A stretch of 60,000 bases of DNA from Tubulanus polymorphus. Lineage: Eukaryota; Nemertea; Palaeonemertea; Tubulaniformes; Tubulanidae. Numbering within the stretch: position 1 is the stretch's first letter; every line of letters starts with the position of its first letter. Of the stretch, positions 1 through 60,000 are shown in pieces. The stretch covers positions 2,057,001 to 2,117,000 of the forward strand of contig NC_134029.1 in assembly GCF_964204645.1 (NCBI RefSeq), read 5' to 3'. The notes beneath the pieces were generated by a model. The model was given only the letters and a program-made list of their open reading frames with translations, was not told the origin of the DNA and made no database searches. The translations under genes and the position numbers were made by a program.

Positions 1-145
1 AAGAAGGTTGGACCTGGTAAGGCCAGCATTAGACGTTGGTATTACAATCGTAATGTAAAGGACTGTAAGAAGTTCTACTGGGGTGGAATGAAAGCAAATG
101 GAAACAACTTCAAATCGTTGAGAGCTTGTCGCAAGAGATGCGTCC
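1..145 (+). CDS. Exon 1 (K), 5' truncated
   Basis: Kunitz domain cut by the window edge before its first Cys. Reactive loop VGPGKA has Gly where BPTI has Cys14, and GGM replaces GGC at Cys38. Middle reads [11 protein letters not shown]; ends in ACRKRCV before donor GTAAGT. Confidence 0.88.

Positions 146-60000: not shown

What the first reader, a model, noticed from the sequence alone, without database searches (positions are those of the whole stretch)
1..60000. A single giant gene fills the window: about 231 exons and 12,300 codons with neither end in sight
Every coding block on the + strand joins the next in frame, and no intron exceeds about 340 bp, leaving no room for promoters, UTRs or signal peptides of separate genes. 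Coding density is about 61%. A cysteine-rich protein above 12,000 residues with more than 230 exons would rank with the most exon-rich genes known.
Basis: partly seen in the sequence, partly recalled or inferred. Interest (0 to 1): 0.92.

Follow-up and report, generated by a model that had tools for sequence, protein, structure and literature searches.

The report
A 406-exon gene for a mega-polycation
An unnamed animal carries one predicted gene of about 406 exons that would make a 20,700-residue secreted protein built of some 600 tiny, disulfide-rich, strongly positively charged modules, probably an extracellular gel or glue, with more coding exons than human titin.

Summary
A gene model of the window gives 231 exons (two cut by the edges), 230 introns of 72-325 bp, every internal exon phase 1-1, 12,298 codons and no stop. 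The window lies at C5:2057001-2117000 of a 268-Mb genome. Extending it showed both ends: TATA box, signal-peptide-like exon, VWD, TIL-like and EGF domains and four ordinary antistasin domains at the 5' end; an ordinary antistasin domain, two tail exons, stop and AATAAA at the 3' end. The predicted whole is 406 coding exons, 105 kb and 20,724 residues: 607 derived antistasin-like six-cysteine repeats and 24 Kunitz domains, 7,273 Lys+Arg against 126 Asp+Glu. Exons of an internal duplication show purifying selection (omega 0.115). Human TTN has 363 coding exons (PMC5874998). Most likely it is a secreted, disulfide-knit polycation that forms a gel, coat or glue with polyanions; the nearest functional analogue I read of is flatworm Mlig-ap1 (PMC6410801).

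The parts
1..60000 (+). Interior of one predicted gene (whole gene C5:2026200-2131233; window = C5:2057001-2117000): 231 exons, two cut by the edges, 365 six-Cys antistasin-like repeats, 19 Kunitz domains
   Evidence: Gene model; whole gene
1..145 (+). Kunitz exon, cut by the window edge (C14/C38 lost: GPG...GGM)
2004..2168 (+). Kunitz exon (C14/C38 lost)
4502..4666 (+). Kunitz exon (C14/C38 lost)
7189..7353 (+). Kunitz exon (C14/C38 lost)
11257..11421 (+). Kunitz exon (C14/C38 lost)
14651..14815 (+). Kunitz exon (C14/C38 lost)
17259..17423 (+). Kunitz exon (C14/C38 lost)
19412..19576 (+). Kunitz exon that keeps both C14 and C38 (one of two in the gene)
22823..22987 (+). Kunitz exon (C14/C38 lost)
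24561..24725 (+). Kunitz exon (C14/C38 lost); the automatic model first split it wrongly
28139..28303 (+). Kunitz exon (C14/C38 lost)
32185..32349 (+). Kunitz exon (C14/C38 lost)
34484..34648 (+). Kunitz exon (C14/C38 lost)
36268..36432 (+). Kunitz exon (C14/C38 lost)
45782..45946 (+). Kunitz exon (C14/C38 lost)
48910..49074 (+). Kunitz exon (C14/C38 lost)
51296..51460 (+). Kunitz exon that keeps both C14 and C38 (the other of two)
54547..54711 (+). Kunitz exon (C14/C38 lost)
58194..58358 (+). Kunitz exon (C14/C38 lost)
35173..35625 (+). One exon with five CxC-ended six-Cys units (453 nt)
43208..43675 (+). Longest exon of the window, 468 nt, five six-Cys repeats
29399..29723 (+). Longest intron in the window, 325 bp
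1..699 (+). Right end of the second copy of an 8-kb internal duplication (C5:2043139-2051116 against 2049755-2057699, 92% identity)

Best explanation
The window is the middle of a single, complete and functional gene of an unnamed animal. It encodes one secreted protein of about 20,700 residues (2.47 MDa). Shown from sequence: signal-peptide-like first exon; VWD, TIL-like and EGF domains; four ordinary antistasin domains; 607 derived antistasin-like repeats (mostly C-x4-C-P-x2-C-x2-G-x8-C-x3-C-x-C) with 24 Kunitz domains spaced among them; one ordinary antistasin domain; a basic tail; stop. The derived repeat differs from the ordinary domain by one more residue between cysteines 4 and 5 and by near-complete replacement of acidic by basic residues (mean net charge +9.9 against -1.2 for 21 ordinary domains from elsewhere in the genome). 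Inferred: the array grew by exon and multi-exon tandem duplication of phase 1-1 modules, which always keeps the frame. Each repeat folds as a small disulfide-locked beta-hairpin unit, so the chain is a string of rigid beads with a net charge near +7,150. Secreted, and perhaps joined end to end through its VWD head as VWD proteins often are (recalled), it binds and condenses polyanions (sulfated glycans, mucins, nucleic acid or mineral precursors) into a cohesive gel, coat, cocoon or glue. The Kunitz units are mostly structural, since 22 of 24 have lost the C14-C38 disulfide that braces the inhibitory loop.
For: Single gene: 231 exons in frame with 0 stops in the window. Whole model: 406 exons, 62,175 nt, one terminal stop, intron phases 402 x 1, 2 x 0, 1 x 2. 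TATAAAAG lies 61 bp before the ATG and AATAAA 470 bp after the stop. Pfam: VWD 2.6e-28, EGF_3 3.6e-7, Antistasin 6.8e-5 for the head piece (3 stretches) and 2e-10 for the last domain; Kunitz 2.3e-17 and 8.3e-20 for the two Kunitz exons scanned, and 24 Kunitz hits over the cut-off at this locus in the genome search. Derivation from antistasin: 22 of 32 single repeats hit PF02822 at E up to 10, best 4.7e-4; the five ordinary domains score against a profile of derived repeats so that 128, 7, 71, 1 and 4 of 2,000 shuffles that keep the cysteines do as well. Selection: 23 exon pairs of the internal duplication, all of equal length, dS 0.088, dN 0.010, omega 0.115. Charge: K+R 7,273, D+E 126, and 40 of 607 repeats hold any acidic residue. 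Fold: a two-repeat exon models as two beta-hairpins, best model mean pLDDT 81.6. Function by analogy: Mlig-ap1 of Macrostomum lignano has over 3,600 residues of K/R-rich region plus a vWD/C8 unit, is needed for adhesion and is proposed to be cohesive; heparin-like sugars block attachment (abstract and passages).
Against: No RNA, protein or expression evidence. The ten 5' exons and the last exon were set by eye from frames and splice sites; the automatic model's own first two exons and last exon there were dropped. Pfam found no C8 domain at E up to 1, and TIL lies just under its curated cut-off (24.2 against 24.5 bits). The antistasin link is weak for single repeats (10 of 32 gave no PF02822 hit), and two of the five ordinary domains barely beat shuffles. 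Of the five AF2 models of the repeat exon three have mean pLDDT 74-82 and two about 41; no PDB fold matched. The Kunitz model was poor (55.8). The species is unknown, so no tissue or habit can be tied to the protein. Two Kunitz domains keep both C14 and C38, and the residue after position 14 is K or R in all 24, so some inhibition remains possible.
Confidence: 0.62

Rival explanations
1. A tandem cluster or operon of several shorter antistasin/Kunitz genes, perhaps resolved by trans-splicing, that only looks like one gene.
For: No transcript was seen. 13 of 405 introns hold a weak ATG-led hydrophobic stretch. TATAAAAG occurs three times in the gene body and AATAAA 74 times.
Against: One VWD head and one tail for 406 exons. 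The array exons are phase 1-1 without a stop. Split codons restore the linker Pro (161 of 230 in the window). Introns have a median of 92 bp and a maximum of 513 bp, which I judge too short for promoter, UTRs and signal exon.
Confidence: 0.06
2. A polyprotein of cationic peptides: the chain is cut into hundreds of 30-residue, six-cysteine, roughly +10 peptides that act as antimicrobials.
For: Each repeat is small, six-Cys and strongly basic (mean net charge +9.9 over 607 repeats), as many antimicrobial peptides are (recalled).
Against: Linkers (such as [11 protein letters not shown]) are as short and basic as the repeats and offer no distinct processing site (exon lists; no cleavage predictor was run). 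A VWD head and 24 Kunitz domains fit a structural chain better.
Confidence: 0.14
3. A multivalent protease inhibitor: ordinary antistasin and Kunitz inhibition multiplied for defence or feeding.
For: Both domain families are named for inhibitors. The residue after position 14 is K or R in all 24 Kunitz domains, and two keep all six cysteines.
Against: 22 of 24 Kunitz domains have lost C14 and C38 together, and the repeat has an extra residue beside cysteine 5 and a reversed charge.
Confidence: 0.12
4. Assembly or haplotype artefact that lengthens the array.
For: An 8-kb stretch is duplicated at 92% identity. No reads could be examined.
Against: The duplicates differ by dS 0.088 with intact frames, and removing one copy's 23 exons would still leave 383. 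389 of 417 standard repeats are unique; the contig is 24.9 Mb.
Confidence: 0.03

Closest known systems
Mlig-ap1, flatworm adhesion protein (PMC6410801; abstract and passages seen)
   Same: Giant secreted protein; thousands of residues of extreme K/R content; vWD/C8 unit; Cys-rich part
   Different: 5,407 residues; its KR regions lie at the two ends, apart from a Cys-rich middle with C-type lectin and 17 EGF modules; the word 'antistasin' does not occur in that paper's main text. Here charge and cysteines sit in the same repeat
Antistasin family (PF02822)
   Same: Six-Cys repeat of under 30 residues, C-x4-C-x3-C-x2-G, often one domain per phase 1-1 exon here; five members by cysteine pattern at the ends of this protein
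   Different: 607 derived repeats have three residues, not two, between cysteines 4 and 5, and a charge reversal; copy number. The leech protein of PMC12838937 (abstract and passages seen) has four domains
Kunitz/BPTI domain (PF00014)
   Same: Clear sequence members
   Different: 22 of 24 lack C14 and C38; they are embedded in a structural array
Titin (TTN)
   Same: Giant modular protein with hundreds of exons (363 coding, PMC5874998, passages seen)
   Different: Intracellular muscle protein of Ig/FnIII domains (recalled); fewer coding exons than the 406 predicted here; about 35,000 residues (recalled), so longer
VWD-headed secreted proteins (mucins, SCO-spondin, sea star Sfp1; recalled except Sfp1, named in PMC6410801)
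   Same: VWD on a large secreted Cys-rich chain
   Different: Those lack an antistasin-derived polycationic array as far as I recall
Papilin (name recalled; likely copy at C1:9.37 Mb, L020)
   Same: Mixes Kunitz and antistasin-like domains in one predicted secreted protein
   Different: Eleven Kunitz hits there, Ig and PLAC-like parts; no polycationic array seen in the 10 kb fetched

Membership tests
Antistasin (PF02822) | Pfam profile match over the curated cut-off | tested here: inconclusive
   Met by the 3'-terminal domain (41.4 bits, cut-off 21.2) and by the head piece as a whole (23.7); derived repeats only weakly, 22 of 32 at E up to 10, best 4.7e-4
Antistasin (PF02822) | Six cysteines with C-x2-C-x-C at the end | tested here: not met
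   Met by 5 domains; the 607 derived repeats have C-x3-C-x-C, so they are called antistasin-like, not members
Antistasin (PF02822) | Inhibits serine proteases | not testable with these tools
   No assay
Kunitz/BPTI (PF00014) | Pfam match over cut-off | tested here: met
   63.4 and 71.2 bits, cut-off 21, for two exons; 24 hits over the cut-off at the locus
Kunitz/BPTI (PF00014) | Three disulfides including C14-C38 | tested here: not met
   22 of 24 lack both cysteines, 2 of 24 keep both
VWD-headed gel-forming secreted protein | Signal peptide, VWD, C8 and TIL units | tested here: inconclusive
   VWD met (99.8 bits, cut-off 22.9); TIL 24.2 bits against cut-off 24.5; C8 not found at E up to 1; signal peptide judged by eye only
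VWD-headed gel-forming secreted protein | Multimerises or forms gels | not testable with these tools
   No assay
Temporary-adhesion proteins of the Mlig-ap1 type | Sequence homology to Mlig-ap1 beyond shared domains | not tested
   Mlig-ap1 sequence not at hand; the resemblance is of composition and domain kinds
Exon-rich giant genes (titin-like in scale) | More than 300 coding exons in one gene | tested here: met
   By prediction only: 406 against 363 coding exons for TTN; not confirmed by RNA

The most novel reading that the evidence does not exclude
The gene has more coding exons than any documented gene and makes the most positively charged single polypeptide known (net about +7,150), a folded, disulfide-knit polycation that an animal lineage evolved from an acidic protease-inhibitor repeat by charge reversal and runaway phase 1-1 exon duplication, as the cationic half of a polyelectrolyte glue, gel or coat.
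Probability: 0.45. Interest if true: 0.9.

Novelty: new variant of a known kind. Interest (0 to 1): 0.82.

Why it matters
If transcribed as predicted, it passes titin in coding exons while all but three introns share one phase, a natural experiment in how far exon duplication and accurate splicing (405 removals per transcript) can go. The protein would be a natural folded polycation at an extreme of charge and cysteine content, relevant to adhesives, gels, coacervates and biomineral templates. It also shows a traceable path: ordinary antistasin domains remain at both ends and, with near-neutral to acidic charge, elsewhere in the genome, so the charge reversal can be reconstructed and tested.

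Tried and rejected

Species: no COX1 match, so no mitochondrial record was found. Eryth_link_C and GFP gave no match, but nothing rang in the controls either, so these are uninformative. Requests for let-7 (RF00027), 18S (RF01960), PF00379 and PF14830 did not complete. (TTAGGG)n lies at the start of contig C10 and within the first 5 kb of C9, and in none of the other five contig ends looked at; it argues against most insects (recalled).

Considered and dropped: silk, collagen or mucin-type low complexity (the repeats are six-Cys); assembly noise (see rivals); a nonsense array (purifying selection).

A first guess that one Kunitz exon was broken was wrong; it is intact. The shuffle test failed at its last step and was redone. 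In one search the controls after the first shuffle did not run, so the flanks were not scored as controls. In one search two of four length classes gave no usable median ratio.

Full report
What was checked. I built a gene model by dynamic programming (splice-site matrices, codon log-odds, all three phases allowed, trained on the window itself) and got a chain across all 60,000 bases (all exons are listed). One Kunitz exon was first split wrongly; it is open, 165 nt like the other 17 complete ones, and was rejoined. Result: 231 exons (the first and last cut by the window), 230 introns of 72-325 bp with median 92, 229 GT and 1 GC donors, 12,298 codons and no stop.

Is it more than chance? The training on the window itself makes a good chain likelier, so controls were run. 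Without any splice model, the + strand frames hold 367 six-Cys repeats, the - strand none, and 20 shuffles none. The trained model scores 13,218 on the + strand, 19 on the - strand and 93 on one shuffle; the script failed on the next shuffle, so further shuffles and the flank controls are missing. 75 of 230 window introns have a length divisible by three, as chance gives, whereas all 229 complete exons of the window do; 369 of the gene's 405 introns would stop translation if retained. The codons split by introns in the window give proline in 161 of 230 cases, the residue also found at that linker position in 119 of 156 cases inside exons. This is independent support for the predicted junctions.

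Both ends. The window is C5:2057001-2117000 of G000, 267.8 Mb in 77 contigs, on a 24.9-Mb contig. Kunitz hits extended beyond the window on both sides, so I fetched 50 kb upstream and 30 kb downstream. Derived repeats run from C5:2029608 to 2130560. Upstream lie, in order, an ATG at 2026200 opening a signal-peptide-like exon (TGLILAILWIAAG core; judged by eye), two VWD exons, a Cys-rich exon in the place of a C8 domain (not recognised by Pfam), a TIL-like exon, an EGF exon and four ordinary antistasin domains. Downstream lie an ordinary antistasin domain (2130743-2130826), two tail exons and a TAA that ends at 2131233. A TATAAAAG stands at 2026139, 61 bp before the ATG, and an AATAAA at 2131703. 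Pfam: VWD 99.8 bits, EGF_3 30.7, TIL 24.2 (cut-off 24.5), Antistasin 23.7 for the head piece and 41.4 for the last domain (cut-off 21.2); C8 was not found. The ten head exons and the last exon were set by eye; the model's own first two exons and last exon were dropped.

The whole gene. 406 coding exons over 105,034 bp, 62,175 nt of coding sequence and 20,724 residues; intron phases 402 x 1, 2 x 0 and 1 x 2; introns 70-513 bp, median 92. Exon classes: 367 with one to five derived repeats, 24 Kunitz, 5 ordinary antistasin, 10 others (the six head exons, two odd repeats and two tail exons). Mature mass 2.47 MDa. Lys+Arg 7,273, Asp+Glu 126, Cys 18.5%. Human TTN has 363 coding exons (PMC5874998, passages). 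I know of no gene with more, but the paper searches that worked did not address exon records, and the ones that would have failed, so 'record' is not established.

What the repeat is. Of 607 repeats, 417 have the exact spacing C-x4-C-x3-C-x11-C-x3-C-x-C, with P after cysteine 2 in 413 of 417 and G before the basic stretch in 416 of 417. 22 of 32 single repeats match Pfam Antistasin at E up to 10, best 4.7e-4. A profile of the derived repeats scores the five ordinary domains so that 128, 7, 71, 1 and 4 of 2,000 shuffles that keep the cysteines do as well: good for three domains, weak for two. The ordinary domain has two residues between cysteines 4 and 5, the derived one three. Charge: 21 ordinary domains, found by pattern in three loci elsewhere in the genome, average -1.2 (range -3 to +4), the five at the ends of this protein are +6 to +8, the 607 derived ones average +9.9 with a minimum of +6, and only 40 of 607 hold any acidic residue. 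The pattern missed some ordinary domains in those loci, so 21 is a part. The last domain of the giant protein (CMMYC.FGF....GCEICKC) closely resembles those of an ordinary antistasin gene pair at C1:23.68-23.70 Mb. So the repeat is best read as a charge-reversed antistasin derivative, not a member by the C-x2-C rule.

Kunitz units. 24 in all, 19 in the window. In 22 both C14 and C38 are replaced (GPG...GG-[not C]); in 2 both are kept; none has just one. That pairing is what loss of a disulfide predicts. The residue after position 14 (P1) is K or R in all 24.

Selection and growth. An 8.0-kb stretch is duplicated in tandem at 92% identity with a step of about 6.6 kb. Its 23 exon pairs are of equal length with dS 0.088, dN 0.010, omega 0.115. 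Pairs of other like-length exons (at most 45 exons a class, pairs with over 70% synonymous difference left out) give a median dN/dS of 0.174 for 177-nt and 0.158 for 162-nt exons; the other two classes gave no usable median. The 150 places that the genome search scored for one repeat exon, of 387 candidates, all lie at this locus; the rest were not scored.

Mechanism. Shown by sequence: signal-like exon, VWD head, extreme positive charge, six Cys per bead. Modelled: a two-repeat exon gives two beta-hairpins at mean pLDDT 81.6, with two of five models poor and no PDB match. Inferred: disulfide-locked polycation that condenses polyanions, possibly multimerised by its head. The best analogue read is Mlig-ap1 of Macrostomum lignano, with KR-regions of more than 3,600 residues, pI above 14, a vWD/C8 unit, and a proposed cohesive role; heparin-like sugars block attachment (PMC6410801, abstract and passages). 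Rivals are a cationic peptide precursor, a multivalent inhibitor, a gene cluster and an assembly artefact; each is listed with its refutation.

Literature. No paper in the library holds antistasin, VWD and Kunitz together; [quoted passage not shown] These do not exclude print elsewhere.

Verdict. New variant of known kinds (antistasin, Kunitz, VWD), at an extreme of exon number and charge.

Noticed in passing
window 746-896: (AT)75 microsatellite inside an intron of the array.
   Followed up: no
C5:2043139-2051116 and 2049755-2057699 (second copy ends at window 699): Overlapping 8-kb tandem duplication at 92% identity carrying 23 exon pairs, all in frame.
   Followed up: yes
L037, L038 (C1:23.673-23.682 and 23.690-23.699 Mb): Two convergent ordinary multi-domain antistasin genes, with the domains spread over separate open frames and near-identical repeats inside L038; likely relatives of the giant gene's terminal domain.
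   Followed up: partly
L020 (C1:9366001-9376000): Papilin-like gene (name recalled) with eleven Kunitz hits, an antistasin-like domain, Ig and PLAC-like parts.
   Followed up: no
L017-L019 (C10:786001-816000): Small Kunitz genes in a tandem duplication with a 9,783-bp step (792249/802032, 796453/806236).
   Followed up: no
L021 (C9:1498001-1508000): Cluster of near-identical Kunitz genes with an upstream leader repeated almost unchanged, which looks like a recent expansion.
   Followed up: no
L009 (C5:2008637, 2009434, 2010232): The same 68-aa open frame three times at about 798-bp steps, apparently a long-period satellite.
   Followed up: no
L034, L035 (first 5 kb of C9 and C10): (TTAGGG)n telomere-type repeats; absent from the other five contig ends looked at.
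   Followed up: partly
C5:2019.8 kb (-) and 2023.6-2024.8 kb (+): Upstream neighbours look like SLC25A46 and an adenosine deaminase-like gene (names recalled, no search made; frames).
   Followed up: no
window 19412-19576 and 51296-51460: The only two Kunitz domains of the array that keep C14 and C38; either ancestral or restored by conversion.
   Followed up: no
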